Origin: Ectothiorhodospira sp. BSL-9
GTDB taxonomy: Bacteria > Pseudomonadota > Gammaproteobacteria > Ectothiorhodospirales > Ectothiorhodospiraceae
Direction of reading: 5' to 3'
Length of the DNA stretch: 64,000 nucleotides
Assembly: GCF_001632845.1 (NCBI RefSeq)
Contig: NZ_CP011994.1
Location: 2,738,001 to 2,802,000 of the forward strand
Part shown: piece by piece, positions 3,371 through 23,777 of the stretch
Numbering within the stretch: position 1 is the first letter of the stretch
How the letters are laid out: the number at the start of each line of letters is the position of its first letter
The notes under the pieces: generated by a model
What the model was told of the DNA's origin: nothing
Database searches by the model: none
The model's input: the letters and a program-made list of their open reading frames with translations, nothing else
Made by a program: the position numbers and the translations under genes

Positions 3371-3544
3371 TGTTACGTCCCGCACTGATCCCGCTTACCA
3401 CCCCCTCGCCATCCCAGGTTCCTTGAGGGCCTGTTAAAGCACATCCCCGCCTTCAATCCGGGACATCCGGGTCAAAGAAAAGGCCGGTGCACCTCTGGTA
3501 GTGTGAAATCTTCGACCAAATCACAACACCAAAAGGCACCGGCC

Positions 3545-4078
3545 ATGGCTTTGATCCTGCCAGGGATTGCGTCCCTTGAGCAACACTTATCGGCCCTGTT
3601 GACTCATCCCGAGGGGTATCGACCCAAGCGGTGCCCGCATTGTGGTCGCGCCGGGCTGTGGTGCCACGGGTGCTATGGCCGCAAGGCCGACCGGGATCGT
3701 GGTGGCACCCTGAATCCGATTGCCATTGCGCGATTTCGATGCCCGGGGTGTTGCCGCACCTGTTCGAGGTTGCCCGAGTGCATTCCCCCACATCGTTGGT
3801 ATCTGTGGGCGGTACAGCAGTGGGCATTGCTGGCACTCCTGGCGGGGCGTTCCTGCCGCGCCCTGAGCCGGGAGGGGATGCCGGGCAGGCACACCCTGGG
3901 GCGGTGGATGCACCGTTGGCGGGAGCGGTTTCACCTGCACGCCTTTGCCTTGTGTCAGCACGACCCTGGGTGGGGGCGTTATCCCGGCATGGCCACCTTG
4001 TGGCCGGCGGTGCTGGCCTGCATGCCGCTGTCAGCGGCGATGATCCTGGTACAGCATGTCGGGATCGCCATCCCATGA
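3545..4078 (+). CDS. Element gene A: zinc-ribbon/HTH protein (DUF6431-like), copy 1
   Basis: A 177-residue protein with two cysteine pairs near the N-terminus (KRCPHCGRAGLWCHGC and FRCPGCCRTC), forming a likely zinc ribbon. A helix-turn-helix-like stretch follows (SREGMPGRHTLGRWMHRW) and then a hydrophobic tail. It resembles proteins annotated DUF6431 next to integrase-core transposases; that name is from memory. The ATG at 3545 follows AAAAGG at normal spacing; a GTG at 3503 is the alternative. As the first gene of the element it is a candidate end-binding or target-selection protein. A diverged counterpart sits in the same position in the third element. Confidence 0.7.
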   Translation: MALILPGIASLEQHLSALLTHPEGYRPKRCPHCGRAGLWCHGCYGRKADRDRGGTLNPIAIARFRCPGCCRTCSRLPECIPPHRWYLWAVQQWALLALLAGRSCRALSREGMPGRHTLGRWMHRWRERFHLHAFALCQHDPGWGRYPGMATLWPAVLACMPLSAAMILVQHVGIAIP

Positions 4079-4209
4079 AGGCACGGGGATGCCCGTGGCG
4101 GGACAGGGGGTCAGTCGTGTTTCCATGACTCCACACAGTCTGCCCCTTGGACGGGGTGGGGCGCTGGGTTTTGCTGGGCGTTCCCTATCCGGCCCCAGGA
4201 GGCCTGCCC

Positions 4210-5568: not shown

Positions 5569-6368
5569 ACCCCATGTACCGTGAACACTTCGGTCTCACC
5601 CAGGACCCCCTGGGCAAGCAAAGCCGCGCGCTGTTCGATACCGAGCCGCTGCGCTTACTCAAACAACGCTTCGACTGGTTGCTCGAACACCCCGGCGTGG
5701 GACTGCTCACTGGCCCCCCGGGAGTCGGCAAGACCGCCGCCCTGCGCCAACTGACGCAACCCCTCAACCCGCATCGCTTCGAGGTCATCTATCTGGCCGA
5801 AACCGACTTCGGGCGCCTGGACCTGTATCGCTCACTGGCCCTTGCCCTTGGCCTGGAACCCCCGCATCGACGCGCCGCCCTGTGGCGGGAAATCAAGGCC
5901 CGACTGCGCGAGATGGCCGAGCAAAAACACCTGCTGCCCCTGTGGATCATCGACGAAGCCCAGAACCTGCCCAACGAGTTCTTCCGCGATCTGCCGGCCT
6001 TCATCAACTTCGCCTTCGACTCCCAGGACCTAATGACCCTGTGGCTGGTGGGACACCCCAGCCTCGCCCAGACCCTGCAGCGTGCCCCCTACGAGGCCCT
6101 GGCCAGCCGTCTGCAGTGCCATATCCAACTGCCCCCCATCGACGACCCCGAGCAGTTCACCGCCCTGGTCAGGCATGGACTGAAGCAGGCCGGCGTGCAG
6201 CAGCAACTGATGTCCGACTCCGGCCTACACCTGCTGCTCATGGCCAGCCGTGGCCGACCCCGCACCGCCAGCCAGATCCTGTGTACCGCCATGAAACTGG
6301 CCGTGCCCAAGGGACTGAATCACCTCCCCGACGAACTGCTCCAGGAAGCCATCGAGGCCCTGCGATGA
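5565..6368 (+). CDS. Element gene C: TniB/TnsC-like AAA+ ATPase (ExeA type), copy 1
   Basis: A 267-residue AAA+ ATPase. It begins with the ExeA/TniB-like opening MYREHFGLTQDPLG and has Walker A GPPGVGKT at residues 50-57, Walker B LLPLWIIDEAQ around D130/E131, and later sensor motifs (LWLVGHPSL, LASRLQCHI). In Tn7, Mu and Tn5053 systems the equivalent ATPase binds target DNA and activates the transposase. This copy is intact: the C-run at 5714-5719 has six bases and keeps Walker A in frame, unlike copy 2. Both ends overlap neighbours by ATGA. Confidence 0.9.
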   Translation: MNPMYREHFGLTQDPLGKQSRALFDTEPLRLLKQRFDWLLEHPGVGLLTGPPGVGKTAALRQLTQPLNPHRFEVIYLAETDFGRLDLYRSLALALGLEPPHRRAALWREIKARLREMAEQKHLLPLWIIDEAQNLPNEFFRDLPAFINFAFDSQDLMTLWLVGHPSLAQTLQRAPYEALASRLQCHIQLPPIDDPEQFTALVRHGLKQAGVQQQLMSDSGLHLLLMASRGRPRTASQILCTAMKLAVPKGLNHLPDELLQEAIEALR

Positions 6369-6574
6369 ATACCCAGAACATCGAAAAGCCGGTCCTGCCC
6401 CCGGACCTGGACCCCGACACGGTGCGCGCCCTGCACACCGTCCTGCTCAACCTGGTGGATCACCTGGAGTCGGTGTACTTCGCGCAACTGCGCCAGGAAG
6501 AGGAAAGACCGGACAACGACGTCACCACCCCCCGCCGGGCTTGCCGGCTGCCGGGCGATGAGCCACCCTTCTGA
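6365..6574 (+). CDS. Element gene D: small acidic protein, copy 1
   Basis: A 69-residue protein starting at an ATG that overlaps the ATPase stop. The middle is a predicted helix (VRALHTVLLNLVDHLESVYFAQL) shown here in part by its core LLNLVDHLESVY, followed by an acidic, charged stretch, and it ends DEPPF. The third element has a 75-residue protein in the same place with the same layout, a similar helix ending in ESHYLGQI and the terminus DNPPF. Conservation of position, size and C-terminus supports a real transposition-associated protein. No function is known to me. Confidence 0.65.
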   Translation: MNTQNIEKPVLPPDLDPDTVRALHTVLLNLVDHLESVYFAQLRQEEERPDNDVTTPRRACRLPGDEPPF

Positions 6575-6694
6575 GTCACATCCGTCCCAGGCTGCGCGCG
6601 GAGGTGTTACCTTCCGCGCTCAGCTCGGGATGGGCCCTTTATCCCACCTCACAGAGGCCGGGATGGAAAGCCTTGGATAGGGTGGGACGTAACA

Positions 6695-7106: not shown

Positions 7107-7961
7107 ATGACGATACCCAATCTCAAAGCCCTCGCTGGACTCGACCGCGATCTGCAACAGTCGTTGTTGAGCCAGATCCGCGACCTCTGGACCCATACCT
7201 CCACCGCCCTGGAGGGCAACAGCCTCACCCTGGGCGAGACCAAGTTCGTCATCGAGGAGGGGCTGACGGTCTCCGGCAAGCCGTTGAAGGATCATCAGGA
7301 GGTGATGGGGCATGCCCGCGCCATCGAACTGATCTACAAGGCGCTGGGCGGGGAAGTCACCGAATCGCACTTGTTTGACCTGCACCGGGCGGTGCAATCA
7401 GAACTCGTGGCGGACATCTACAAGCCCTGCGGGGCCTGGAAAGTGGAGCCCAACGGCACCTATGCCGTCACCGAGGAGGGGCGCCAGGCCTTCATCGAGT
7501 ACGCCTCGCCCGAAGACGTGCCCGCATTGATGGCCGGGTGGCTGGCCGAGCTCAATCGGCTCGCTGAAGAACCCCTGAGCGAGACGGACGCAGTCGATGC
7601 CTATGCCCGGTTGCACCTGGGATTCGTCCACGTACATCCGTTCTGGGACGGCAACGGGCGCCTGGCGCGTCTGTTGAGCAACATCCCGGCGCTCCGTTCC
7701 GGCCATCTGCCGGTGGTGATCGATGTGCGCGACCGTAAGGAATACATCGACATCCTGGCCCAATACGAGCTGGCAAGCGGGCAGCTCACCGCCGAAACCG
7801 GTGTCTGGCCCGCCGAGGCCCAGGAGGCAGCCTTCCGGGCATTCTGCCAGCGGTCCTACCAGGCAACGCGGGACCTGGTTGAGCAGGCAAGAGAGCAGCA
7901 GGCGAAGCGCAACCTTCGTCGCAACACACCCAAACCGCGTCCAGATCGGGATGATCAATGA
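7107..7961 (+). CDS. Fic family protein with N-terminal inhibitory motif
   Basis: A 284-residue Fic-domain protein, predicted to transfer AMP (or another phosphate-linked group) from a nucleotide to a target protein. The core motif HPFWDGNGR is at residues 177-185, matching HxFx(D/E)GNGRxxR with the catalytic H177. STALEG at residues 32-37 matches the [S/T]xxxE[G/N] inhibitory helix, so this is a self-inhibited, class II type enzyme (inhibitory helix N-terminal to the Fic core in the same chain). The C-terminus is basic. It lies 28 bases after the GGDEF remnant on the same strand. No separate antitoxin gene is visible, as expected for self-inhibited Fic proteins. Confidence 0.92.
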   Translation: MTIPNLKALAGLDRDLQQSLLSQIRDLWTHTSTALEGNSLTLGETKFVIEEGLTVSGKPLKDHQEVMGHARAIELIYKALGGEVTESHLFDLHRAVQSELVADIYKPCGAWKVEPNGTYAVTEEGRQAFIEYASPEDVPALMAGWLAELNRLAEEPLSETDAVDAYARLHLGFVHVHPFWDGNGRLARLLSNIPALRSGHLPVVIDVRDRKEYIDILAQYELASGQLTAETGVWPAEAQEAAFRAFCQRSYQATRDLVEQAREQQAKRNLRRNTPKPRPDRDDQ

Positions 7962-9880: not shown

Positions 9881-10365
9881 GTCGACGTCAGCGAATTGGA
9901 ACTGACCCGCTACCGTCTGACCAAGCGCGAGGAGAAGAGCCTGCGCCTGGAAGACTCGGATGGGGACTATGGCCTCAAGCCGGTCAGCAGGTGGGTTCAG
10001 GCAAACCCCACGACCCGGAGAAGCAGCGCCTGGCGGAGATCATCGAACGGCTCAACGACCTCTATGGCGCCGAGGTGAGCGACAAGGACCAGCTGCATTT
10101 TGCCAACGGCATTGCCGACCGCATCGAGCGTGACGAGTCGGTGATGGCTCAGGTACGCAGCCACAGCGAGGATAAGGTGATGCACGGCCTGTTCCCGAAG
10201 AAGATCATTGACGCGGTGCTGGATGCCCTGAACGACCACGAGGAGCTGAGCATGCCGGTACTGGAGGATGAAAAGGCGGGGAGGGCGTTTGCGCTGCTGA
10301 TTTTGAGGTTGCTGGCGGGGCGGTCAGCGAGGATTGAGGAGGGGGAGCAAGGCCGACGAGTTTGA
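9881..10365 (+). pseudogene. hsdR: hsdR (type I restriction R subunit) C-terminal remnant, frameshifted
   Basis: Two overlapping frames together encode the C-terminal region of a type I restriction endonuclease R subunit: DVSELELTRYRLTKREEK, SDGDYGLKPVS, then GSGKPHDPEKQRLAEIIERL, FANGIADRIERDESVMAQV and VMHGLFPKKIIDAVLDAL. A single G is missing after 9988 compared with the second fragment at 23946, which reads SEVGSGKP without interruption. A TAG lies just upstream (9871-9873), and the helicase and nuclease regions are absent. No hsdM or hsdS is nearby. It is debris of a former restriction locus, duplicated in part 14 kb away. Confidence 0.75.
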
Positions 10366-11102: not shown

Positions 11103-11790
11103 ATGAGCAGAACAAAGGTGAGGTGGGATATGGCCAGTAGCGATCAAAAAAAATACGAAGATTTCGTGAACCACTCGACTGCATCCGCGTCTTCTGAAGT
11201 CGTCTTTCTTTATGGTAAAGCGAGTGCTGAGTTCATTAAAGGTTATCGAGGGATCGATAATCAGAATGGTTTCAGGTTCAATAAGTCTCACAAGGATATT
11301 AGCTCTTATCGGATTAACCCTGAGTTCAAGGATAATAATATCAAGCAACAGGCTGGCTTCTCTGCAGAGGTTCTATACACCTCGAAAGAAAATGCGAGAA
11401 GGATCTTGGAGGGTGATCCCAATAGAGTGGCAAGATCAGACGATACTAGAATGGGGACTAATCATCCTGTTGTCGACCATGTGGTGGTTGATAAGAAAGG
11501 AAACATCATTGATGGCTCCGGTTCTCAAATGAAATTCGTCAACGATGAGAAGACGTTGATTAAGAGGATTGCCGAGGGTGAGGGTGGTGGGAAAACGGAT
11601 CTTTCGCGATACAGAGGAAAAAAACTTTTACTACCTACCGAGCAGGTCGAAACTGCTAAGGCGTTTTGCGATGAGCAGGCTAAGCAGTACGACAAAGCAC
11701 ATGAAGAATTGATAAAGAAGAACGAGATTGAAAAGGCAAAGGTAGCCAAAGAAAGAGCGGACTATTATCGCCAAGCTAAAAAAGACATAT
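11103..11790 (+). pseudogene. AT-rich module gene 1 (5' part): large membrane protein interrupted by transposon copy 2
   Basis: This is the first 229 codons of a gene cut by the second Mu/Tn7-like element. The soluble N-terminal half includes KQQAGFSAEVLYTSKENARR, NHPVVDHVVVDKKGNIIDGS and GSQMKFVNDEKTLI, followed by a charged helical stretch (EELIKKNEIEKAKVAKERAD). Joining codon ..GAC ATA T at 11790 to 15119 continues in frame as SDSDISEGQARFYREHPELA and into the hydrophobic half. The reconstructed product is 522 residues. I do not recognise the family. Codon use is AT-rich against GC-rich surroundings, indicating horizontal transfer. Confidence 0.75.
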
Positions 11791-11910
11791 TGTTACGTCC
11801 CACCCTATCCAAGGCTTTCCATCCCGGCCTCTGTGAGGTGGGATAAAGGGCCCATCCCGAGCTGAGCGCGGAAGGTAACACCTCCGCGCGCAGCCTGGGA
11901 CGGATGTGAC

Positions 11911-12120
11911 TCAGAAGGGTGGCTCATCGCCCGGCAGCCGGCAAGCCCGGCGGGGGGTGGTGACGTCGTTGTCCGGTCTTTCCTCTTCCTGGCGCAGTTG
12001 CGCGAAGTACACCGACTCCAGGTGATCCACCAGGTTGAGCAGGACGGTGTGCAGGGCGCGCACCGTGTCGGGGTCCAGGTCCGGGGGCAGGACCGGCTTT
12101 TCGATGTTCTGGGTATTCAT
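11911..12120 (-). CDS. Element gene D: small acidic protein, copy 2
   Basis: The 69-residue translation is identical to that of copy 1: a central helix with LLNLVDHLESVY, an acidic region and the C-terminus DEPPF. Its ATG (12120) overlaps the end of the ATPase reading frame. Because the ATPase is frameshifted upstream, any translational coupling from the ATPase to this gene would be disturbed in this copy. Confidence 0.6.
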   Translation of the reverse strand: MNTQNIEKPVLPPDLDPDTVRALHTVLLNLVDHLESVYFAQLRQEEERPDNDVTTPRRACRLPGDEPPF

Positions 12121-12919
12121 CGCAGGGCCTCGATGGCTTCCTGGAGCAGTTCGTCGGGGAGGTGATTCAGTCCCTTGGGCACGGCCAGTTTCATGGCGGT
12201 ACACAGGATCTGGCTGGCGGTGCGGGGTCGGCCACGGCTGGCCATGAGCAGCAGGTGTAGGCCGGAGTCGGACATCAGTTGCTGCTGCACGCCGGCCTGC
12301 TTCAGTCCATGCCTGACCAGGGCGGTGAACTGCTCGGGGTCGTCGATGGGGGGCAGTTGGATATGGCACTGCAGACGGCTGGCCAGGGCCTCGTAGGGGG
12401 CACGCTGCAGGGTCTGGGCGAGGCTGGGGTGTCCCACCAGCCACAGGGTCATTAGGTCCTGGGAGTCGAAGGCGAAGTTGATGAAGGCCGGCAGATCGCG
12501 GAAGAACTCGTTGGGCAGGTTCTGGGCTTCGTCGATGATCCACAGGGGCAGCAGGTGTTTTTGCTCGGCCATCTCGCGCAGTCGGGCCTTGATTTCCCGC
12601 CACAGGGCGGCGCGTCGATGCGGGGGTTCCAGGCCAAGGGCAAGGGCCAGTGAGCGATACAGGTCCAGGCGCCCGAAGTCGGTTTCGGCCAGATAGATGA
12701 CCTCGAAGCGATGCGGGTTGAGGGGTTGCGTCAGTTGGCGCAGGGCGGCGGTCTTGCCGACTCCCGGGGGCCAGTGAGCAGTCCCACGCCGGGGTGTTCG
12801 AGCAACCAGTCGAAGCGTTGTTTGAGTAAGCGCAGCGGCTCGGTATCGAACAGCGCGCGGCTTTGCTTGCCCAGGGGGTCCTGGGTGAGACCGAAGTGTT
12901 CACGGTACATGGGGTTCAT
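12117..12919 (-). pseudogene. Element gene C: TniB/TnsC-like ATPase, copy 2, frameshifted in Walker A
   Basis: The gene matches copy 1 except that the C-run in the P-loop codons (read as G at 12766-12770) has five bases instead of six. The protein therefore reads LLTGPRESARPP and ends shortly after, where copy 1 reads LLTGPPGVGKTA. The rest of the ATPase persists in another frame down to 12117. If real, this copy cannot make its own ATPase and would depend on copy 1. A homopolymer consensus error would give the same picture. Confidence 0.9.
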
Positions 12920-14274
12920 GCCTCCTCGTTCGCGTCGGTGTCGAGCACCCAGTCGACCTGCTGTTGCTGCAGGGCCAGCTCGATGGCATTGGGTCCGGTT
13001 TGGGCGGTGGGGGACGGATCGGGGATGACTGGCTGCTGACGTCGACGTTTGAGGTTGGCGCGGGCATCCAGGGGCGTGGCCTTGCCCACGGGCTGCTCCT
13101 GGGCATCGAGCACGGCCACCACCTGGCGTTGATGGGGATCCTCGACCAGGATGACGCTCTGACCGACGAGTTCGAAGGGCACCTCCAGGTACTGCCCGTG
13201 CAGGGAGACCGTGCCATCCTTGCGCACCTTGCGGGTGTGATAGTGATGGAACAGGGCGTCGAGTTCGGTGGCCAGGGGCCCCAGGGGGCGGATGTTGACC
13301 AGGTCCTGCTGATAGCGGGCCAGCGGGGTGAGGCCATTGAGGCCGGCATGGGGCGTCACATGGTAGTCCTGGTCCAGCCAGGCCCACAGACGCGCGTTGA
13401 GATCCTCCAGCCCCTGGATCCGCTGCAGATCCAGCTCGCCGAGGAAGTGATCCCGCACTCGGCGATGCCAGCGTTCGATCTTACCCTTCCCTTCAGGCTG
13501 GTAAGGCGCACAGTAGACCATATGGATCTTCAGCCGCGCGCAGATGGCCTGCAACTGGGTGCTACGGTATGCCGCCCCCTGGTCCAGCATCAGCCGTGAC
13601 GGCAGGCCGCGCTTGAGCAGGGCCTGCTTGAGCACCCCCTGGATGGCCAGGGCCCCCTCGTCGGTACAGAAGGCGCTGTGGGTGATCAGTCGCGAGGCAT
13701 CATCCATGAGCGAGACCAGATAGACCTTGCGCAGCCGCCCCTTCACCGGGATCTTGGGGCCATGCATGACGTCGCCCTGCCACAGATCCCCGGCATGATG
13801 GGCCTCGAAGCGTCGCCGTTCCCGGGGTTGACTGGGGGATCCCGCAGTGTGGGAGAGCCCATGGCGCCGCAGCAGACGGTGAACGCTGGAACGGGACAGC
13901 ACTCCCCGGGCCACCCGACCCTCCTTTTCCAGCAACCGGATCAGGGCGTTGAGGGAACGTTGTGGGTTGTCCTGCTTGGCCTGCAGCAGGGCCTGTTGCA
14001 GCGCCGGGTCGATCTTTGAGGCGCCCTGATCCGAGCGGGAGCACGGCGCCAGGGCCTCGATATCACCGCGCTTGTAGGCGTAATACCAGCGCTCGATAGT
14101 CTTCTCCGCCAGACGCACCGGCCGCCCGGTGGTGGGATCCAGGTAATCCCGGGCGGCCAGGGCTTGCAGGTGCTGTTTGAGCTCACCCCGGTGCAGTGGC
14201 GGACAGGCTGCCAGCGTGCCGAGCACGCTCAGACGGAACAGGGCCATGGGATGGATGGGTTTGCTGATTTTCAT
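12916..14274 (-). CDS. Element gene B: TniA/TnsB-like DD(35)E transposase, copy 2
   Basis: A 452-residue transposase with the same translation as copy 1, including D168, D231 and E267 and the C-terminal barrel. The start is the ATG at 14274 behind AGGAGG. It remains intact although the adjacent ATPase gene is frameshifted, so this copy could still supply transposase protein. Confidence 0.92.
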   Translation of the reverse strand: MKISKPIHPMALFRLSVLGTLAACPPLHRGELKQHLQALAARDYLDPTTGRPVRLAEKTIERWYYAYKRGDIEALAPCSRSDQGASKIDPALQQALLQAKQDNPQRSLNALIRLLEKEGRVARGVLSRSSVHRLLRRHGLSHTAGSPSQPRERRRFEAHHAGDLWQGDVMHGPKIPVKGRLRKVYLVSLMDDASRLITHSAFCTDEGALAIQGVLKQALLKRGLPSRLMLDQGAAYRSTQLQAICARLKIHMVYCAPYQPEGKGKIERWHRRVRDHFLGELDLQRIQGLEDLNARLWAWLDQDYHVTPHAGLNGLTPLARYQQDLVNIRPLGPLATELDALFHHYHTRKVRKDGTVSLHGQYLEVPFELVGQSVILVEDPHQRQVVAVLDAQEQPVGKATPLDARANLKRRRQQPVIPDPSPTAQTGPNAIELALQQQQVDWVLDTDANEEA

Positions 14275-14405
14275 GGGCAGGCCTCCTGGGGCCGGATAGG
14301 GAACGCCCAGCAAAACCCAGCGCCCCACCCCGTCCAAGGGGCAGACTGTGTGGAGTCATGGAAACACGACTGACCCCCTGTCCCGCCACGGGCATCCCCG
14401 TGCCT

Positions 14406-14939
14406 TCATGGGATGGCGATCCCGACATGCTGTACCAGGATCATCGCCGCTGACAGCGGCATGCAGGCCAGCACCGCCGGCCACAAGGTGGCCATGCCGG
14501 GATAACGCCCCCACCCAGGGTCGTGCTGACACAAGGCAAAGGCGTGCAGGTGAAACCGCTCCCGCCAACGGTGCATCCACCGCCCCAGGGTGTGCCTGCC
14601 CGGCATCCCCTCCCGGCTCAGGGCGCGGCAGGAACGCCCCGCCAGGAGTGCCAGCAATGCCCACTGCTGTACCGCCCACAGATACCAACGATGTGGGGGA
14701 ATGCACTCGGGCAACCTCGAACAGGTGCGGCAACACCCCGGGCATCGAAATCGCGCAATGGCAATCGGATTCAGGGTGCCACCACGATCCCGGTCGGCCT
14801 TGCGGCCATAGCACCCGTGGCACCACAGCCCGGCGCGACCACAATGCGGGCACCGCTTGGGTCGATACCCCTCGGGATGAGTCAACAGGGCCGATAAGTG
14901 TTGCTCAAGGGACGCAATCCCTGGCAGGATCAAAGCCAT
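14406..14939 (-). CDS. Element gene A: zinc-ribbon/HTH protein (DUF6431-like), copy 2
   Basis: The 177-residue translation is identical to copy 1, with the cysteine pairs CPHC, CHGC and CPGC/CRTC and the HTH-like segment. It lies about 130 bases inside the element end with its own presumed promoter. The ATG at 14939 is chosen for the same reason as in copy 1; a GTG at 14981 is possible. Confidence 0.7.
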   Translation of the reverse strand: MALILPGIASLEQHLSALLTHPEGYRPKRCPHCGRAGLWCHGCYGRKADRDRGGTLNPIAIARFRCPGCCRTCSRLPECIPPHRWYLWAVQQWALLALLAGRSCRALSREGMPGRHTLGRWMHRWRERFHLHAFALCQHDPGWGRYPGMATLWPAVLACMPLSAAMILVQHVGIAIP

Positions 14940-15118
14940 GGCCGGTGCCTTTTGGTGTTGTGATTTGGTCGAAGATTTCACACTACCAGAGGTGCACCGG
15001 CCTTTTCTTTGACCCGGATGTCCCGGATTGAAGGCGGGGATGTGCTTTAACAGGCCCTCAAGGAACCTGGGATGGCGAGGGGGTGGTAAGCGGGATCAGT
15101 GCGGGACGTAACACATAT

Positions 15119-15999
15119 CAGACTCGGATATCTCGGAAGGGCAAGCAAGATTCTATCGAGAGCACCCAGAGCTAGCTACTGCAACTGATATGGCTAAATT
15201 AAGTCATCAAGCTGGTCTGAAAGGAGCCCAGGTTGGTGCGGTGGTTGGTGGGGCAATTTCGATACTAGTAAACGTTGTGCAAGTAGGCACAGGAGAGAAA
15301 AGTAAAGAGAAGGCGGCTGCTGACATCTTGCATTCTACTGGTAGCGCTGCCGCTGCAGGGTATATGACTGCGTTTTCGGGGTCGTTATTGTCAGCCGCCA
15401 TGCAACAATCGAAGTCGCAGGCCATTAGAAGTCTTTCGGCAACGTCACTACCCGCAGTAGTCATTTCGACATGCATGAATCTAGCGGGCATCATCAAAGC
15501 CTATGTGTCCGGAGAGATCGATGGTGTTCAGTTTCTTGAGAAGGCTGGTCAGTCCGGTACTAATATGCTGGCGTCCAGTTTGTTCGCCACCATTGGACAA
15601 ATAGCGTTACCGGTACCTGTGGTAGGTGCGATGGTGGGAGGGATGATCGGCTACAGCCTGTCTAGTATGTTCTATGCAGAAGGTCTCCTCGTCCTCAAGG
15701 AGGCGAAGCAGGCAAGGATAGATTACGAGAACACCAAGCGTCTATGCGAAGCAGCAAGACAGACCATGCGCATAGAGAGGGTAAGAGTGGAGGAGCTTTT
15801 TAAAAATTACCTGGACCAGAAGGAAAAAGAATATCAGGACTTATTTTCGAACATGGATAGACAATTGCTCGAAGGAGATGTATCTGGTTTTTGCCAGACT
15901 ATCAATCAGTTTGCAGGTGGTTACGGCTATAATCTAGAAGTTTCTTCAGTTAAAGATCTGGACGATATTATTAATGGGCCAGGCTCGCTGAAAATTTAA
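15119..15999 (+). pseudogene. AT-rich module gene 1 (3' part): hydrophobic half
   Basis: This is the continuation of the gene cut at 11790. After a short soluble link it contains several long hydrophobic, alanine/glycine-rich segments (GAQVGAVVGGAISILVNVV; AAAAGYMTAFSGSLLSAAM; SLFATIGQIALPVPVVGAMV), then a basic coiled-coil-like helix and a soluble tail ending NGPGSLKI. An in-frame ATG at 15190 could in principle start a separate protein. The pattern is that of a membrane-inserting or pore-like domain fused to a soluble N-terminal domain. It is followed 16 bases later by the TerB-like gene on the same strand, so the three genes form a probable operon. Confidence 0.75.
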
Positions 16000-16015
16000 C
16001 CAAGAGAGGTGGTTT

Positions 16016-16714
16016 ATGTATTTAAGCTTGCTTAAGAGTCGTGACAGCAAGATCTTGTTTTTGAAGTATGCGGTTTTGGTTTCCTTTGTTGATGTGCTAA
16101 CAGATGAAGATGAAGGGGTCGAATTTGAAGCTAGGTACGGCTCGCATTTCTATTTGTCTGACGGTCATTTTCACGATGAAATCGTTTCTTTTGCACAAAA
16201 TAATGTAGAAAGCATTCATAAAACATTAAAAAGCTTCATTGCTACGGGGGTTGAGCTGAAGACCCTGAAAATGTTTTGTGACGAGATGGGTATGGAGGCA
16301 TTTTTAGATCGCGACCCTTGGTATTCCGAGTTGGATAGAAAAGTTGATGAGTTGTTGGCGCAGTTTTTGTTTGGGACAGCAGCGTTAATACAAAAAACGG
16401 GTCAAACTACTAATCCAGATTTATTGAGAGAGCAAAAAATAAGGCAATCTTTTTTAATAAAGAGCTGTGAGGCGTTTGCTGAGTATAACGAGGAAATCAT
16501 CGATAATCTTTCACCTGAGGAACGAAAGGTCATGATTTTTGAGTTATTAGGAATGGCTTACTCTGATGGCGTTGTATCAATTCAAGAAAAGGAAGTGGTC
16601 ATTGAGATATCTAGTTTGTTGGGTGTTGAGCATTCCTTCATTGAAGATGTGACCGAAGTGATCGAAGAAGTTTCAAGGTTGCATAAAAAAGGACTTGAGT
16701 TAATCGAAGAGTAG
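16016..16714 (+). CDS. AT-rich module gene 2: protein with C-terminal TerB-like domain
   Basis: A 232-residue acidic protein. The last 70 residues fit the TerB fold (RKVMIFELLGMAYSDGVVSI then QEKEVVIEISSLLGV), with the conserved D-G and E positions that bind metal in TerB proteins. The N-terminal 150 residues are unrecognised. The start at 16016 has AGAGGTGG upstream. TerB domains occur in tellurite-resistance proteins and also in phage-defence and stress operons at membranes. Here it lies between two proteins with membrane segments, so a role as their soluble partner is inferred. Confidence 0.75.
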   Translation: MYLSLLKSRDSKILFLKYAVLVSFVDVLTDEDEGVEFEARYGSHFYLSDGHFHDEIVSFAQNNVESIHKTLKSFIATGVELKTLKMFCDEMGMEAFLDRDPWYSELDRKVDELLAQFLFGTAALIQKTGQTTNPDLLREQKIRQSFLIKSCEAFAEYNEEIIDNLSPEERKVMIFELLGMAYSDGVVSIQEKEVVIEISSLLGVEHSFIEDVTEVIEEVSRLHKKGLELIEE

Positions 16715-16724
16715 GAGTCTTGAT

Positions 16725-17717
16725 ATGCCATTACCGTTAATTGTACCTATTGCTGTTGGTTTGGCAGGTTTATATGGCGCAGGAAAGGGCGCCAAGGCTG
16801 CTATCGATAATAGTGATGCGAAGGACCTTAATAGAAGGTCAGAGAGGATTGTCGAAGAGGCGCAGAATTCCATTGAAAACAGTCGATTGGAATGCCACGC
16901 AAGATTAGAAGATCTCGGCAAAAGAAAACTAAAAGCAATTGAAGTGGGTATCGGTAGGTTTGTGGATGTTTACTCGAGAATGGAGAATGTCGAGCTTGAT
17001 GATTTCAACCTTAACGAGAATGGGTTGCCGCAAAAAAAGGAAGAGACCCCAGAGTTGATGATGAAGGAGTTTGAGTTCTTGGCCGAAAGTGGAAAAGGCG
17101 TGGGGGCGGGTGCATTAGGAGGCGGTTTAGCGGCGTTTGGGGCATATAATGGAACCATGATGTTGGCGGCAAGTGGTACAACCACCGCGATTTCCTCGTT
17201 AAGTGGTGCCGCAGCAACAAATGCAACTTTAGCTTGGTTGGGCGGCGGGACATTAGCTTCTGGCGGCCTCGGAATGGCTGGTGGTGTGATGGTCCTAGGG
17301 ACCTTAGCAGCAGGGCCGGCTCTGTTGATTTTCGGGAGTATATTAGGTGCGAAGGCAGATAAGAATCTGTCCGATGCAAAAGCTAACCTTGAGAAAGCGA
17401 AGACGTTTGAGGAAGAATCTAAATTAGTCATTGCGCGCCTTACCGGCATCATCGATGCTGCGACGCTCGCTTCGAATGTAATATCCAAGGCGAGGTCACG
17501 GCTGAGAAGATCTCTTGATGCCTTGGAGAAAGTGCAATCAACGCAAGGTGTGGATTACAGGTCGTACTCTAGAGAACAGAAGGAGGTTGTTGTTATTGCA
17601 GTAAAATATACTCAGCTGATACGGGTGTTGGTGGAGTTGCCGCTGCTCAGTGAGAAGGGTGATTTAATAGAAGCTTCAGTGGAGGATCTTAGGCAGAAGA
17701 ATAAGGAGCTGGCTTGA
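16725..17717 (+). CDS. AT-rich module gene 3: glycine/alanine-rich membrane protein with coiled coils
   Basis: A 330-residue protein. It opens with a hydrophobic segment (IVPIAVGLAGLYGAGKGAKA) and then has a charged helical region (about 30-125). A long glycine/alanine-rich hydrophobic block of about 110 residues with glycine-zipper spacing follows (VGAGALGGGLAAFGAYNGT; TLASGGLGMAGGVMVLGTLA). A second coiled-coil region completes it (NLSDAKANLEKAKTFEEESK). The layout resembles membrane-remodelling or pore-forming proteins, but no GTPase or catalytic motif is present. It starts ten bases after the TerB-like gene and is the last gene of the module. Confidence 0.7.
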   Translation: MPLPLIVPIAVGLAGLYGAGKGAKAAIDNSDAKDLNRRSERIVEEAQNSIENSRLECHARLEDLGKRKLKAIEVGIGRFVDVYSRMENVELDDFNLNENGLPQKKEETPELMMKEFEFLAESGKGVGAGALGGGLAAFGAYNGTMMLAASGTTTAISSLSGAAATNATLAWLGGGTLASGGLGMAGGVMVLGTLAAGPALLIFGSILGAKADKNLSDAKANLEKAKTFEEESKLVIARLTGIIDAATLASNVISKARSRLRRSLDALEKVQSTQGVDYRSYSREQKEVVVIAVKYTQLIRVLVELPLLSEKGDLIEASVEDLRQKNKELA

Positions 17718-18142: not shown

Positions 18143-18526
18143 ATGAACAGAGGTGTCCGACAGCGCAAGCGCGCTTTCTGGAAGGGACTGGTCCAGCAGT
18201 GGGCGGCTTCAGGCCAGAGCAAGGCGGCCTTTGCCCGTCAGCACGGGGTCACACCCCAGCAGTTATCGCAGTGGGCAGTGCGCTATCCGGAATGGGTGGT
18301 GGCCGCGACCGAGGCCAAGGCGGAGCATTCGCCCTCGAAGCCCGCCACCGGGACGCAGCGCTTTTTGACGGTGCGCACGGTGGGGGACGACCCTGATCCC
18401 GTAGACCTGTCGCCGCAGCTCGGTGGACCGGTGGTGGTGACCTTGAGCCACGGTCGTCGGCTCGAGCTCTATCCGGGGTTTTGCGCCCAGACCCTGCAAC
18501 GGGCCATGGAGGTCCTGGAGGCATGA
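18143..18526 (+). CDS. tnpA: IS66 accessory protein TnpA
   Basis: A 127-residue protein with an N-terminal helix-turn-helix (FWKGLVQQWAASGQSKAAFA; HGVTPQQLSQWAVRYPEW), the usual TnpA layout of IS66 elements. The C-terminal half (VVVTLSHGRRLELYPGF) is the family's beta-rich tail. AAGGAG precedes the ATG at about ten bases. The stop overlaps the tnpB start by four bases. Confidence 0.88.
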   Translation: MNRGVRQRKRAFWKGLVQQWAASGQSKAAFARQHGVTPQQLSQWAVRYPEWVVAATEAKAEHSPSKPATGTQRFLTVRTVGDDPDPVDLSPQLGGPVVVTLSHGRRLELYPGFCAQTLQRAMEVLEA

Positions 18527-18888
18527 TCGCCTGGCCCACGGGGGTGGCCATCCACCTGGCAGTGGCGCCGGTGGATTTCCGCAAGGCCTTCGATGGTCTG
18601 TGCATCGAGATCGTCGAGGCCCTGGAGCGGGATCCGCTCAGCGGTGAGTTGTTCGTCTTCCGCAACCGGGCCGGGGATAAGCTCAAGGCCCTGTACTGGG
18701 ATGGCCAGGGCTTTGTGATGATCTACAAGCGCCTGGAGAAGGGGCGCTTCAAGTGGCTCCAGCAGGTGGATGGAGATGCAGAGGGTGAGGTTCGGCTCTC
18801 CCGCAGCCAGATGCAGGCGCTGTTCGAGGGTATCGATTGGCGGCGCCTGGAAACCCCTCGAAAATGCCTTGCCACAGCCACCCGCTGA
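18523..18888 (+). CDS. tnpB: IS66 accessory protein TnpB
   Basis: A 121-residue protein with the IS66 Orf2 signatures VDFRKAFDGLCIEI, LFVFRNRAGDKLKALYWDG and GFVMIYKRLEKGRF. It overlaps tnpA by ATGA, implying coupled translation. The length is normal for the family. TnpB is needed for IS66 transposition, but its biochemical role is not settled. Confidence 0.92.
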   Translation: MIAWPTGVAIHLAVAPVDFRKAFDGLCIEIVEALERDPLSGELFVFRNRAGDKLKALYWDGQGFVMIYKRLEKGRFKWLQQVDGDAEGEVRLSRSQMQALFEGIDWRRLETPRKCLATATR

Positions 18889-18947
18889 TAGATAAATACC
18901 ATCAACAAGTCAGCCACTTAGCGCTTTCGGCGTGGTAAAATGCGGGC

Positions 18948-20585
18948 ATGTTAAAGGGCGCTGCACAAGACCTGCCGACACCCCCTTCCGGCCTGCGCGA
19001 ATCGCAGTTCCGCGCTGCCCTGGCGGACCGTGATCAGCTCATTGAGCAGCAGTCCCAGCTACTCGCCCAGCAGCAGTCCACGATCAATGAGCTGAGCGAA
19101 CAACTGGAGAATCTCAAGCGCCAGGTCCTTGAGGCCCAGCGCAAACGCTTCGGGCAAAGCTCCGAGCGTGGCTGTTACCTCCAGCAGGATCTCTTCCACC
19201 CGCAGGAAGCCCCGATCCCCGAGCAAGACGAAGAAGAAACCACCGAGGCGCCCAAAAAGCGGCGCAAGACCCAGCCCCCTCGAGGTCGCCGTGTCCTCCC
19301 ACCGGAATTGCCCCGGGAGACGCAGCGCTACGACTACGACGACGAAACCCGGGCCCAACTGGAAGCCCAGAACGGCGGCCCGCTGGTGGAGATCGGTGTC
19401 GAGGTGACCGAGACCCTGGAGTACCAACCCGGGCAGCTGTACGTGAAGCGCCACGAGGTGCCCAAGTATGCGATCCAGGGGGATGACGGGGAGCGCACCA
19501 TCGTCTCTCCACCGCGCCCCTCGCCACCGATCCCCGGCGCCCAGGTGGGTGCCAGCCTGCTGGCCCATACCGTGATCAGCAAGTTCGCGGATCATCTGCC
19601 GCTCAACCGCATCAGCCAGCAGCTGGCCCGGGATGGTTACGACGTCCCCCGCCAGCGGCTGTGCGACTACGTGCTGCTGTCCGCCTCGGTCCTGGCCCCG
19701 CTGGCCGACCTCGTTCGCCAGGATGCCCTGGCCAGTCCGGTCGTTCACAGTGACGACACCACGGTGCCGCAACTGGAAAAGGGCCGACGACAAACCCGAA
19801 CCTGTCGCCTGTGGCTCTACCTGGGCCGCGGGCGGGAGGACGGCATCATCCCGGTGTTCTACGACTACACCACCAACCGATCCCAGGAAGGTCCGCTGGA
19901 ACACCTGCGTGACTACCAGGGATATCTGCAAGCCGATGCCTATGCGGGCTACCTGAACGCCGAGCGGATCCAGGAGGCGCTGATCTGGTGTGCCTGCTGG
20001 GCCCATGCGAGGCGCCCGTTCGAAAAGATCGCCCGCAAACACAAAAAACGCGGCCGGGTGCATCTGGTGATGAAGCTGATCACGGCGATCTACCAGGTGG
20101 AATCGCGCCTGCGCGAACAGGGGATCACGGACCCCGAGCAGATCCGCGAGGCCCGCCAGCGCCGCACGGTGCCCATCCTCAAGCGCTTGCGTCGCCTGCT
20201 GGACCGCATCCTGCCCAGCCTGCCGCCCCGGGGAGACTTCGCCAAGGCGATCGGTTATGTCCTCAACCACTGGCAGGCCCTGATGCGCTTCACTGAGGAT
20301 GGCCGCCTGGAGCCCGACAACAACCGCGGCGAACGCGCCCTGCGCGGGGTATGCGTGAGCCGCAAGAACTGGAACTTCACCGGCTCCGAGAATGGTGGCC
20401 ACGCCCTGGCCATCCTGCTCACCCTCCTGGAAACCTGCAAGCAGAACGGGGTGAACCCGCGTCACTATCTGATCGATGTGCTTGAGCGCATCCAGGATCA
20501 TCCCGCCAATCGCCTCCACGAACTGCTGCCCTATCACTGGGAACCGCGCACCCAGGCCTGCGGGGAGAATGCCAGCGGGGAGTGA
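18948..20585 (+). CDS. tnpC: IS66 transposase TnpC
   Basis: A 545-residue transposase. An N-terminal leucine-rich coiled coil (LIEQQSQLLAQQQSTINELS) is followed by a proline/charged link, a beta-rich zinc-finger-like region and the DDE core. Catalytic positions are visible in VVHSDDTTVPQL, YLQADAYAGYL and EPDNNRGERALR. It is full length and undamaged, so the element should still be able to move. Confidence 0.95.
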   Translation: MLKGAAQDLPTPPSGLRESQFRAALADRDQLIEQQSQLLAQQQSTINELSEQLENLKRQVLEAQRKRFGQSSERGCYLQQDLFHPQEAPIPEQDEEETTEAPKKRRKTQPPRGRRVLPPELPRETQRYDYDDETRAQLEAQNGGPLVEIGVEVTETLEYQPGQLYVKRHEVPKYAIQGDDGERTIVSPPRPSPPIPGAQVGASLLAHTVISKFADHLPLNRISQQLARDGYDVPRQRLCDYVLLSASVLAPLADLVRQDALASPVVHSDDTTVPQLEKGRRQTRTCRLWLYLGRGREDGIIPVFYDYTTNRSQEGPLEHLRDYQGYLQADAYAGYLNAERIQEALIWCACWAHARRPFEKIARKHKKRGRVHLVMKLITAIYQVESRLREQGITDPEQIREARQRRTVPILKRLRRLLDRILPSLPPRGDFAKAIGYVLNHWQALMRFTEDGRLEPDNNRGERALRGVCVSRKNWNFTGSENGGHALAILLTLLETCKQNGVNPRHYLIDVLERIQDHPANRLHELLPYHWEPRTQACGENASGE

Positions 20586-20626
20586 GGGTTGGGTATACGT
20601 GCCCTACCGGACACTTACGTTTTTCC

Positions 20627-21147
20627 GGTTTCTAATCCACATCGATGAGGCATTGGCGGCCGAGGCGCAGGCGGCCGGGTGCCCGTGTGGCGGCGTGCTA
20701 CACCGCGCCAACTATCCACGCAAGCCGCGCGGCTGCCCGCCTGCGTTCCGCGCTGAATACGCGACGCGGCTGAGTTTCTGCTGCAGCCAGTGCCGACGTC
20801 GGACGACCAGCCAGTCGGTGCGTTTTCTGGGGCGGCGCGTATGGCTGAGCTGGGTGGTGGTGCTGGGGTCAACCCGGCCGGCCGGGCACGGCACGGCGGC
20901 GGCTGCGTTGTGTGAAGCGTTATCGATTCCCTGGCGCACCCTGGCACGGTGGCGGCGGTGGTGGCGCGAAGACTTTGTGCGGACCTCGCTGTGGCGGGTG
21001 CTGGGTGCGCGGTTCCTGCTGCCGGTGGCTGCGGCACGGTTGCCGAACGGTCTCCTGGAGCAGTTGCCCGGCCAGGAACACGAACCGCTGCGGTGCCTGC
21101 TGGCCTTGCTCACCCCACTCACGATCACGGCGCCCGAGGGGCGCTGA
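20627..21147 (+). pseudogene. Third element gene A, 3' part: zinc-ribbon/HTH protein
   Basis: The fragment encodes RFLIHIDEALA, a cysteine cluster (GCPCGG, FCCSQCRR), a short hydrophobic region and an HTH-like segment (ALCEALSIPWRTLARW). Its layout and position match gene A of the twin elements, including the zinc-ribbon-like cysteines, but sequence identity is low. The 5' end is separated from it by IS66. The transposase gene begins about 100 bases downstream. Confidence 0.65.
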
Positions 21148-21245
21148 GTTCCCGCAGAGGATGCCAATGGTCGAACCGATTCCCGCTGCGTAGCCTTCTC
21201 TCCCGGTCGTGGTGCCGCCGGCACCGCGCATATTGGGAGACGAAC

Positions 21246-22691
21246 GTGCATCCACCGAACGATCCTCTGTTGCGTGATCGATGGGCGCGCTTGCGCTTCT
21301 CGATCATTGGTCCCTTGTTCGCCGCACCGCCGGAACCGGGAGCATTGCGGGCGGCACTGGCGGCGTTGGCCGAGCGCGTCTGGCGCCATCCCGTCACCGG
21401 CACCGAGGTGCGCTTCGGGGTGTCCACACTGGAGCGCTGGTATTACGCGGCACGGTCGGCCCCCGACCCGGTGGCGGCACTGCGCAACCAGCGCCGCCCG
21501 CATGGCCACTTCACCGCCATGACGCCGGCCGTGATCGCCGCCCTGGTGCAGCAATACCGGGAACATCCGGGCTGGACGGTGCAGTTGCACTTCGACAACC
21601 TGTGCGTGGACCTGGCCGACAGCGAGGTCTGCATGCCCTCGTATCCCACGGTGCGGCGCTATCTGAAGGCGCACGGGATGTTCCGCCAGGCGCGGCCGAA
21701 GTGTGCAACCGACGGCGCGATCCTCGCCCGCGACCGATTCGCAGCGCTGGAGGTGCGCAGCTACGAGCTGGACCATGTCTGTGCGCTCTGGCACCTGGAC
21801 TTCCACCACGGTTCGCGCAAGGTACTGACCCGAGAGGGCGCCTGGGTCAAACCGTACCTGCTCGGCATCCTGGATGACCGCTCGCGCTTGATCTGCCACC
21901 TGCAGTGGTACCTGGACGAGACGGCGCAGAGCCTCGTCCACGGCCTGTCCCAGGCACTCATGAAGCGCGGGTTGCCGCGTGCCCTGATGACGGACAACGG
22001 TGCAGCGATGATCGCCGAGGAAACCGTTGCCGGATTGCAGCGCCTGGGTGTGCTGCACCAGACGACGCTACCGTATTCTCCCTACCAGAACGGGAAGCAA
22101 GAGTCCCTTTGGGGGCGTATCGAAGGTCGCCTGATGCCGATGCTGGAGGGACAAACCCCACTCACCCTCGATGTGCTCAACCAGACCACGCAGGCTTGGG
22201 CCGAGCAGGAGTATCACCGCACCCGCCACAGTGAACTCGACACCACCCCGCTGAAACGCTATCTGGCCGGGCCGAACGTCAGCCGGGACTGCCCGCCGGT
22301 CGCGGCACTGGCCGATGCTTTCCGTGTTGAGGTCACCCGCCGCCAGCGACGCTCCGATGGCACGGTGTCTCTGGAGGGGCAGCGCTTCGAGATCCCCGCC
22401 CGCTACCAGCACCTCGACCGGGTGTCGCTGCGCTACGCGCGGTGGGATCGCACCCGCGTCGACTTGGTCGATCCCCGCACCGGCACCGTCCTGTGCCCGG
22501 TGCTGCCGCTCGACAAATCCGCCAACGCCAACGCACAACGACGCGTCCGGCCACCTGCGGCACGCGCGCTCACGCCACTGCCACCCTCGGGGATGGCGCC
22601 GCTGTTGCGCCAGTTGCTGGCCGACTATGCCGCCACCGGCCTGCCGCCCGCCTACCTGCCCACCCCAGACCCCGAAGAGGACTCCGCATGA
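21246..22691 (+). CDS. Third element gene B: TniA/TnsB-like DD(35)E transposase
   Basis: A 481-residue transposase from a GTG at 21246 behind GGGAGA. Catalytic residues are D185 (LWHLDFHHG), D250 (ALMTDNGAA) and E286 (NGKQESLWG), again with 35 residues between the second D and the E. TLERWYYAARSAPDP matches the ERWYYAYKRGD region of the twin elements, and TVSLEGQRFEIPARY matches their barrel domain. The stop overlaps the ATPase start. Confidence 0.9.
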   Translation: MHPPNDPLLRDRWARLRFSIIGPLFAAPPEPGALRAALAALAERVWRHPVTGTEVRFGVSTLERWYYAARSAPDPVAALRNQRRPHGHFTAMTPAVIAALVQQYREHPGWTVQLHFDNLCVDLADSEVCMPSYPTVRRYLKAHGMFRQARPKCATDGAILARDRFAALEVRSYELDHVCALWHLDFHHGSRKVLTREGAWVKPYLLGILDDRSRLICHLQWYLDETAQSLVHGLSQALMKRGLPRALMTDNGAAMIAEETVAGLQRLGVLHQTTLPYSPYQNGKQESLWGRIEGRLMPMLEGQTPLTLDVLNQTTQAWAEQEYHRTRHSELDTTPLKRYLAGPNVSRDCPPVAALADAFRVEVTRRQRRSDGTVSLEGQRFEIPARYQHLDRVSLRYARWDRTRVDLVDPRTGTVLCPVLPLDKSANANAQRRVRPPAARALTPLPPSGMAPLLRQLLADYAATGLPPAYLPTPDPEEDSA

Positions 22692-23533
22692 ACTCGAAAT
22701 TACTGGCCCTCTATGGGCTGAAGTGGAACCCATTCGCCACCGAAATCCCGGTCGAGGCGCTCTATGTGCCCGCACGCGTCGAGGACTTCTACTGGCGCAT
22801 CGAACAGGGCCTGGTCCGCGAAGGCGGCTTCGCCATGATCAACGGCGACCCCGGCACCGGCAAGAGCGTGGTTCTGCGCCTGATCGCGGAACGCCTGGCA
22901 CGGCTGCCCGATCTCACCGTCGTCGCCATCCATCATCCGCAGAGCCAGTTGGCCGACTTCTACCGCGAGATGGGCGATCTCTTCGGCGTCCCCCTGCGCC
23001 CACACAACCGCTGGGGCGGCTTCAAGGCCTTGCGCGAGAACTGGTTCGCGCATCTGGACACCACCCGCCGGCGCGCAGTGCTCCTGATCGACGAAGCCCA
23101 GGAAATGAGTCCCGCGGTCCTGTCCGAACTGCGCCTGATGGCCAGCGCCCGCTTCGACTCACAGACGCTCTTGTGCGTGATCCTTGCCGGCGATGCCCGC
23201 CTGCCCGAGAAGCTGCGCCGCGAGGAACTGATCCCGCTCGGCTCCCGCATCCGCACCCGTCTGGTCACCGAAGCGGCCAGCCGCGAGGAACTCCTGGCTT
23301 GCCTGCAGCATCTGCTCAACACCGCCGGCAACGCCAGCCTGATGACGCCCACGCTCCAGCACACCCTGTGTGACCACGCCATCGGCAACTACCGCCTGCT
23401 CACCACCCTGGCCGCCGAACTGCTCGCCGTGGCCGCCCAGCGCGATCTGCCGCAGCTCGACGAGAAACTCTACCTCGACGTGTTCGCCCCCGCAGAAAAA
23501 CCCACTCCGCGCCGTGCCGCCGCAAGCCGTTGA
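22688..23533 (+). CDS. Third element gene C: TniB/TnsC-like AAA+ ATPase (ExeA type)
   Basis: A 281-residue ATPase opening YGLKWNPFATEIPVEALY, the ExeA-like start, with Walker A GDPGTGKS, Walker B AVLLIDEAQEM, and sensor motifs CVILAGDARL and GSRIRTRL. It is intact. The equivalent protein in related transposons selects target DNA and stimulates the transposase. It overlaps gene B by ATGA. Confidence 0.92.
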   Translation: MNSKLLALYGLKWNPFATEIPVEALYVPARVEDFYWRIEQGLVREGGFAMINGDPGTGKSVVLRLIAERLARLPDLTVVAIHHPQSQLADFYREMGDLFGVPLRPHNRWGGFKALRENWFAHLDTTRRRAVLLIDEAQEMSPAVLSELRLMASARFDSQTLLCVILAGDARLPEKLRREELIPLGSRIRTRLVTEAASREELLACLQHLLNTAGNASLMTPTLQHTLCDHAIGNYRLLTTLAAELLAVAAQRDLPQLDEKLYLDVFAPAEKPTPRRAAASR

Positions 23534-23549
23534 ACCCCTGGAGACCCTC

Positions 23550-23777
23550 ATGCCCGCAACCCTCCATCCGCAATCCCTGCCCTGGCCCGAACTCAGCGAC
23601 GACGCTGTCGTCGAGTTGCAGGCCCTGCTCCACGACTTCCTGATCTTGTTCGAATCCCACTACCTGGGGCAGATCCACCGCTACCACGACGAACGCTCGC
23701 AGGAAAATATGACCCAGCTCAGCTTACTGTCCGACGTCCCCCTCCCGACCGAGGACCCAGACAACCCTCCGTTCTGA
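23550..23777 (+). CDS. Third element gene D: small acidic protein
   Basis: A 75-residue protein 16 bases after the ATPase. A leucine-rich helix (VELQALLHDFLILFESHYLG) is followed by a charged, acidic region and the terminus PDNPPF. The position, size, helix and DxPPF ending parallel the 69-residue proteins of the twin elements, although most residues differ. Confidence 0.65.
   Translation: MPATLHPQSLPWPELSDDAVVELQALLHDFLILFESHYLGQIHRYHDERSQENMTQLSLLSDVPLPTEDPDNPPF

What the first reader, a model, noticed from the sequence alone, without database searches (positions are those of the whole stretch)
11103..17717. AT-rich three-gene membrane module (522-aa membrane protein, TerB-like, glycine-zipper protein): candidate undescribed system
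Seen: three co-directional genes with 16- and 10-base gaps, visibly AT-rich in a GC-rich genome, in an island next to a Fic gene and hsdR remains. Once the transposon is removed, gene 1 encodes a soluble N-terminal domain joined to several hydrophobic, glycine/alanine-rich segments. Gene 2 ends in a TerB-like domain. Gene 3 has a long glycine-zipper-like block between coiled coils. Known: TerB domains recur in stress and phage-defence operons. Inference: a membrane-acting defence or toxin-type system with TerB as soluble partner. I do not recognise gene 1 or gene 3.
Basis: partly seen in the sequence, partly recalled or inferred. Interest (0 to 1): 0.8.

Follow-up and report, generated by a model that had tools for sequence, protein, structure and literature searches.

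The report
Membrane nuclease-like defence candidate with TerB
Three AT-rich genes, the first broken by a jumping element, belong to a gene set carried by many kinds of bacteria that looks like an antiviral defence in which a DNA-cutting-like domain is fixed to the cell membrane.

Summary
Gene 1 (two pieces around a 3,323-bp insertion element), gene 2 (TerB-like) and gene 3 (coiled coil, glycine-rich hydrophobic block, coiled coil) lie as described, at 39-48% GC against a window median of 63%. The trio is real. In 49 genome loci found only by the gene 1 N-domain, gene 3 follows gene 1 in 47, with a gene 2-like ORF between in 29; the other two loci end within 0.3 and 0.8 kb. A CxxCxxCC protein (23 of 49) and a WYL regulator (22 of 49) recur beside it. 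'Undescribed' is only half right: genes 3 and 1 match PADLOC's unpublished candidate pair PDC-M09A/PDC-M09B, so this is a divergent, TerB-containing variant with the reverse gene order. No profile or fold search confirmed that family. Best explanation: a membrane-anchored nuclease that attacks DNA near the inner membrane, comparable with SNIPE in working but not in kin; here it is disrupted by the insertion. The mechanism and the defence function are inferred.

The parts
11103..11790 (+). gene 1, first piece: N-terminal domain with E89, D125, Q142-x-K144 (PD-(D/E)XK-like signature)
11786..11790 (.). target-site duplication CATAT, left copy
11791..15113 (.). insertion element that interrupts gene 1 (own genes on the minus strand: rve-type transposase 12916-14337 and an AAA-type partner, both named by eye)
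15114..15118 (.). target-site duplication CATAT, right copy
15119..15999 (+). gene 1, second piece: hydrophobic helical C-terminal part, PDC-M09B-like (E 5.2e-14)
16016..16714 (+). gene 2: TerB-like protein, 232 aa (Pfam PF05099, E 8e-7, C-terminal part of the family)
16725..17717 (+). gene 3: 330 aa, coiled coil - glycine-rich hydrophobic block - coiled coil, PDC-M09A-like (E 3.3e-24)

Best explanation
The module is a divergent, TerB-containing variant of the PADLOC candidate defence pair PDC-M09, disrupted here by a recent-looking transposon insertion in gene 1. In its intact form gene 3 (coiled coil, glycine-zipper-like membrane block) and the hydrophobic C-terminal half of gene 1 would form an inner-membrane assembly. 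That assembly holds the N-terminal PD-(D/E)XK-like domain of gene 1 at the cytoplasmic face, where it cuts invading DNA on entry, or host DNA when triggered. Gene 2 (TerB) would be a soluble adaptor or sensor, the CxxCxxCC protein of other loci a metal- or redox-dependent accessory, and the WYL regulator of other loci a damage- or infection-responsive switch. Shown: gene set, homology to PDC-M09A/B, conserved residues, predicted topology, recurrent neighbours. Inferred: nuclease activity, membrane location, defence function, and every step of the order of events.
For: PADLOC PDC-M09A matches gene 3 (3.3e-24) and all 43 aligned gene 3 proteins, the window's included; PDC-M09B matches gene 1 piece 2 (5.2e-14) and 34 of 46 intact gene 1 homologues, nearly full length in L054 (59-457 of 524 aa). 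Profile-profile (pairwise): gene 1 C-part against four PDC-M09B proteins E 1.8e-14, probability 98; N-part E 1.2e-4, probability 56; controls (gene 2, gene 3, WYL) at most 2.8. E90, D127, Q144, K146 (L054 numbering) occur in 46 of 46 homologues; E90, Q144 and K146 are also kept in the PDC-M09B proteins L034, L041, L043, L044. AlphaFold2 N-domain, pLDDT by blocks of ten 79-97 over residues 81-180: helix 81-103, strands 109-112, 128-131, 143-145, helix 151-160, strand 176-179; E90 lies in the helix, D127 just before the second strand, QxK at the third. TM-like segments in 44 of 46 gene 1 and 43 of 43 gene 3 proteins. Linkage and neighbours. A natural fusion of the CxxCxxCC domain to gene 1 (L088).
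Confidence: 0.45

Rival explanations
1. Abortive membrane-disrupting system: gene 3 (coiled coils around a glycine-rich hydrophobic hairpin) is the effector that opens the inner membrane when the cytosolic part of gene 1 senses infection; TerB and the CxxCxxCC protein regulate it. The gene 1 N-domain would be a sensor or processing enzyme.
Against: The ClyA-type match lies within the level that helical bundles give by chance, and unrelated coiled coils rank above it. The E, D, Q and K positions of gene 1 are kept in 46 of 46, which a mere sensor would not obviously need.
Confidence: 0.25
2. A stress-response unit (envelope, metal or oxidative stress) without antiviral role, as TerB and CxxCxxCC proteins may suggest.
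For: TerB is named for tellurite resistance, and CxxCxxCC (PF03692) is a putative zinc- or iron-chelating domain.
Against: WYL regulators cluster at the loci (13 of 20 genomes, 0.2 matches expected); flanks hold HerA, SIR2, JukA and mREase_IV matches that are not among the families shown for the control stretches; patchy occurrence (PDC-M09A family in 15 of 369 genomes of the class, several only weak).
Confidence: 0.15
3. An interbacterial toxin with a glycine zipper for translocation, as described for the T6SS DNase Tde1.
For: A glycine-zipper DNase of that kind exists (PMC10240207, search listing with start of abstract only).
Against: In gene 1 the hydrophobic part is C-terminal and gene 3 is a separate protein. 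Pfam scans of gene 1 homologues (25 of 104 families shown), gene 2 homologues, the window's own three genes and 45 chosen neighbours and partners showed no secretion adaptor, LXG or immunity domain, apart from single sub-threshold matches (HrpF-like 0.068; TyeA 0.024).
Confidence: 0.05

Closest known systems
PDC-M09 (PADLOC phage defence candidate, PDC-M09A + PDC-M09B)
   Same: Gene 3 = A, gene 1 = B, adjacent genes; same N-domain residues (E, QxK) and hydrophobic C-part.
   Different: Reverse gene order (B before A), an extra TerB-like gene between, distant sequence (15-20% identity to L054); WYL and CxxCxxCC genes recur here.
SNIPE (membrane-bound anti-phage nuclease, PMC13190303; abstract and passages read)
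   Same: Proposed way of working: a nuclease held at the inner membrane.
   Different: SNIPE is one protein with TM, DUF4041 and GIY-YIG; neither domain is among the 25 of 104 Pfam families shown for gene 1 homologues, and gene 1 comes with partner genes.
Shango and Bunzi (TerB-containing defence systems, PMC10952713 table passage)
   Same: A TerB-domain component.
   Different: None of 30 gene 2 proteins matched a PADLOC model so named at E 0.1; genes 1 and 3 matched PDC-M09 instead.
PD-(D/E)XK nuclease superfamily
   Same: Core topology and E, D, QxK positions in the predicted N-domain.
   Different: No significant profile or fold match to a member.

Membership tests
PDC-M09 | A component matches PDC-M09A | tested here: met
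   gene 3 E 3.3e-24; 43 of 43 gene 3 proteins
PDC-M09 | B component matches PDC-M09B | tested here: met
   piece 2 E 5.2e-14; 34 of 46 intact homologues; piece 1 alone gives no match at E 1
PDC-M09 | A and B genes neighbours | tested here: met
   47 of 49 loci have gene 3 downstream of gene 1, with or without gene 2
PDC-M09 | Order A then B with only two core genes, as in L034, L041, L043, L044 | tested here: not met
   order is B, [TerB], A; whether PADLOC's rule requires an order was not tested
PD-(D/E)XK superfamily | alpha-beta-beta-beta-alpha-beta core with acidic/QxK active-site positions | tested here: met
   predicted topology and 46 of 46 E90, D127, Q144, K146; a model, not a structure
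PD-(D/E)XK superfamily | significant profile or fold match to a known member | tested here: inconclusive
   none found: Mrr_cat E 0.51, Pfam families shown, PDB sequence, Foldseek/VIA
TerB (PF05099) | score over Pfam's gathering cut-off | tested here: met
   29.8 bits against 24.4, profile positions 58-112 of 118; best PDB sequence match of the gene 2 profile is a COG3793 tellurite-resistance protein, 2ou3, E 0.002
Shango / Bunzi | other named components of these systems | tested here: inconclusive
   no such match; which models the library holds for them was not checked
SNIPE | GIY-YIG nuclease and DUF4041 | tested here: inconclusive
   not among the families shown for 46 gene 1 homologues (25 of 104 shown), nor for the window's genes
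any anti-phage defence system | protects against phage | not testable with these tools
   bench test needed

The most novel reading that the evidence does not exclude
Gene 3 is the shared platform of a large, undescribed class of modular membrane nuclease systems: the same glycine-zipper/coiled-coil protein is paired in different bacteria with different nuclease-bearing partners. These are the E-D-QxK protein of gene 1, PDC-M09B, an HNH-like protein with hydrophobic segments (L036, L039) and a separate HNH_2 protein (L042). TerB, CxxCxxCC and WYL proteins serve as interchangeable sensors and switches. The class would tell self from non-self by place, at the membrane.
Probability: 0.33. Interest if true: 0.75.

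Novelty: new variant of a known kind. Interest (0 to 1): 0.5.

Why it matters
If the mechanism holds, this would be a multi-protein, widely spread counterpart to SNIPE: defence by a nuclease fixed at the membrane, with a TerB protein as partner. It would give TerB, CxxCxxCC and WYL proteins a testable place in one antiviral pathway, and would give the PADLOC candidate PDC-M09 a concrete biochemical prediction (E, D, QxK).

Tried and rejected
I saw no paper on this gene set. Searches: 'PDC-M09' (0 papers); TerB/WYL/YkgJ/phage defence system (20 of 248 listed); PADLOC/PDC-M/TerB (20 of 127 listed); phage defence candidate/PADLOC-DB (12 listed); TerB domain/anti-phage/membrane/nuclease (0 papers); TerB/tellurium/phage/nuclease (3); Bunzi (15 of 47 listed); glycine zipper/phage defence/membrane/nuclease (10 of 238 listed). 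Listings were judged by title and start of abstract; bioRxiv is not held. DefensePredictor (PMC13092281): a term search of the main text found no TerB, glycine zipper, YkgJ, WYL or PDC. Payne et al. (source of the PDC names) was not seen; it is cited in passages read in PMC13356809 and PMC11811056. PMC11206119 (one table passage) only names Bunzi's proteins.

Distribution searches: no gene 3 or gene 1 N-domain relative in 50,697 phage records; one of 72,556 plasmid records, an Azospirillum ramasamyi plasmid with WYL, gene 1 and gene 3 but no gene 2 between; by peptide patterns one gene 1 (L154) and four gene 3-like loci in 2.9 million viral contigs; no DNA match of an Enterobacter trio in complete E. 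coli genomes.

Bias: the 49 loci were found with peptide patterns A[SN]AEFIKG and NI[KP]QQAGF, so conservation of those stretches is partly by construction; E90 (three residues beyond), D127, Q144 and K146 lie outside. Near-duplicates exist (L083/L085, L084/L089, L071/L072). The upstream picks given to Pfam were chosen because they looked WYL-like, so their 15 hits are no rate. The HNH-like reading of L036/L039 is by eye (motif recalled); Pfam did not give it at 1e-3.

WYL count mended: by coordinates 15 of 20 genomes had a WYL match in the locus range, but two (L080, L092) could not be placed on the locus's contig and no WYL-like protein was found in those loci, so 13 of 20 stands. For 12 of the 13 the contig length agrees exactly; for L064 it differs by 2 kb (7,541,676 against 7,543,742), and the gene itself was seen in the locus.

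Rows dropped: A2 holds 46 of 49 gene 1 proteins (without L079, L085, L089); A3 42 loci plus the window (without L064, L079, L081, L082, L085, L089, L101); A4 29 plus the window; A9 44 of 46 (without L094, L101). PADLOC flank test: 104 of 173 proteins near 20 loci, 109 of 236 control proteins (sampled at most six a stretch; then 15 and 11 at or near stretch ends left out); only 25 of 108 and 25 of 38 families were shown. Control stretches: 13 of 20 on the locus's own contig by exact contig length, one more (L140) probably so, the rest on another contig of the same genome.
Full report
What is there. Three co-directional genes occupy 11103-17717 on the plus strand. Gene 1 is split by a 3,323-bp element (11791-15113) with inverted ends and a 5-bp target duplication CATAT. 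Four full, near-identical copies and one partial copy of the element sit in this 3.55-Mb genome, so the insertion looks recent. Gene 2 follows after 16 nt and gene 3 after a further 10 nt. The module is AT-rich: 38.6-48.1% GC against a median of 63.3% in 181 bins of 700 bp, with all six bins under 46% at the module. The gene 1 N-domain gave one match in the genome.

Homologues and the trio. A pattern scan of one genome for each of 84,980 species, with the gene 1 N-domain, gave 49 loci in Pseudomonadota, Bacillota, Bacteroidota, Spirochaetota, Actinomycetota, Fusobacteriota, Campylobacterota, Lentisphaerota and Thermodesulfobacteriota. There gene 1 is one open frame of 500-618 aa in 48 of 49; L079 has a shorter frame of 384 aa near a contig end. 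Gene 3 follows in 47 of 49, starting within 60 nt of the gene before it. The other two loci, L079 and L101, end 0.3 and 0.8 kb after gene 1; L101 is a long-branched outlier whose C-part matches weakly. A gene 2-like ORF lies between gene 1 and gene 3 in 29 of 47 and is absent there in 18. Pfam TerB is found in 19 of 30 gene 2 proteins, the window's included (E up to 0.1). The top-scoring locus is a complete set in an Azoarcus bin (L054). On the gene 1 tree, Bacillota and Pseudomonadota rows each fall in several places (7 and 3 label changes), which may reflect transfer but does not prove it.

Neighbours. A CxxCxxCC protein lies at 23 of 49 loci, in one of them (L088) fused to gene 1. A WYL-type regulator lies at 22 of 49: 19 on the same strand upstream of gene 1, two upstream on the other strand, one (L058) downstream. 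All 20 genomes searched have WYL domains, 54 matches in all; in 13 of the 20 a match lies inside the 12-17 kb locus stretch, against 0.2 matches expected by chance. PADLOC at E 1e-10: 104 flank proteins (of 173) matched 108 families, among the 25 shown HerA, SIR2, JukA, mREase_IV and PDC-S02 beside WYL; 109 control proteins (of 236) matched 38 families, among the 25 shown mostly UvrD-type helicase models of Gabija, with mad3, mad8 and reverse-transcriptase models. This favours a defence setting, but the test is small and counts models, not proteins. A WYL-like gene, gene 1 and a cut gene 2-like ORF also end one IMG/VR contig (L154), and an Azospirillum ramasamyi plasmid carries an annotated WYL gene, gene 1 and gene 3 in a row. 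In the window itself I saw no WYL or CxxCxxCC gene beside the module.

Known families. Gene 3 matches PDC-M09A (3.3e-24; 43 of 43 aligned proteins) and gene 1 matches PDC-M09B (piece 2 5.2e-14; 34 of 46 intact homologues, nearly full length in L054). PDC are candidate systems, called 'unpublished candidate systems' in PMC11811056 (passages) and 'phage defense candidates' in PMC13356809 (passages). The PDC-M09 pairs met here (L034, L041, L043, L044) have A before B and no TerB gene between them. So the window's module is a distant variant of that candidate, not an unknown.

The N-domain. In 46 intact homologues E90, D127, Q144 and K146 never vary; the window's first piece keeps them (E89, D125, Q142, K144). 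The PDC-M09B proteins share E90, Q144 and K146 in the alignment. The AlphaFold2 model (mean pLDDT 83; 79-97 by blocks of ten over residues 81-180) orders helix, three strands, helix, strand, with E in the first helix, D just before the second strand and QxK at the third. This is the layout of PD-(D/E)XK nucleases (family layout recalled). Against it: no nuclease among the Pfam families shown, no Mrr_cat profile match, no PDB-sequence or Foldseek match. I hold the nuclease reading at about 0.6.

The membrane part. Hydropathy gives TM-like segments in 44 of 46 gene 1 and 43 of 43 gene 3 proteins. The gene 3 model has more confident flanking helices and a low-confidence glycine-rich centre, so the pore or platform question is open.

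Partner exchange. Relatives of gene 3 without a gene 1 N-domain were seen beside PDC-M09B (L034, L041, L043, L044), beside an HNH-like protein with hydrophobic segments and a CxxCxxCC gene (L036, L039), beside an HNH_2 protein (L042; one HNH_2 match), and beside a short TerB protein and a CxxCxxCC gene (L038, L047). Others, such as L040, showed no such partner. This suggests a membrane platform with exchangeable, mostly nuclease-like partners. It rests on few loci, and the HNH-like reading of L036/L039 is by eye.

How it may work. The closest working model in print that I saw is SNIPE, a membrane-bound GIY-YIG nuclease that cuts phage DNA during injection (PMC13190303, abstract and passages). 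By analogy, gene 3 and the gene 1 C-part would hold the gene 1 N-domain at the membrane, TerB would adapt or sense, and WYL would switch the operon. None of this is shown. The main rival is that gene 3 itself breaks the membrane.

Verdict. Real, conserved and probably antiviral, already named as a candidate in PADLOC, here broken. New to what I could search: the TerB-containing layout, the breadth, the accessory genes, the catalytic-looking signature and the hint of partner exchange.

Noticed in passing
window about 3370-6694 and 11791-15113: Two near-identical, oppositely oriented copies of one insertion element (rve transposase, AAA-type partner and further ORFs, named by eye; 4 full and 1 partial copies in the genome); the AAA reading frame differs between the two copies in the window.
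   Followed up: partly
window 7107-7961: Fic-domain gene matching PADLOC PDC-S04 (4e-26) and SoFic (1.4e-15).
   Followed up: partly
window 9991-10365: 124-aa ORF matching only the C-terminal end of PADLOC PDC-S15 (E 8e-9); probably a remnant of another defence gene.
   Followed up: no
window 18143-23777: Further transposase clusters (IS66-like by eye, then another rve/AAA-type element) directly downstream of the module.
   Followed up: no
L088:262-2118: Gene 1 with a CxxCxxCC domain fused to its N-terminus, a natural link between the two components; TerB-like ORFs lie after its gene 3.
   Followed up: partly
L067:5363-10886: WYL gene, small ORF, a second protein that looks gene 3-like by eye, gene 1, gene 3 and CxxCxxCC gene in a row.
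   Followed up: partly
L036:5247-8317 and L039:3984-6963: Gene 3 relative next to a protein with an HNH-like motif and hydrophobic segments, and a CxxCxxCC gene: a possible sister system.
   Followed up: partly
L154: WYL-like gene, gene 1 and a cut gene 2-like ORF at the end of an IMG/VR contig that also carries phage-like genes (by eye).
   Followed up: partly
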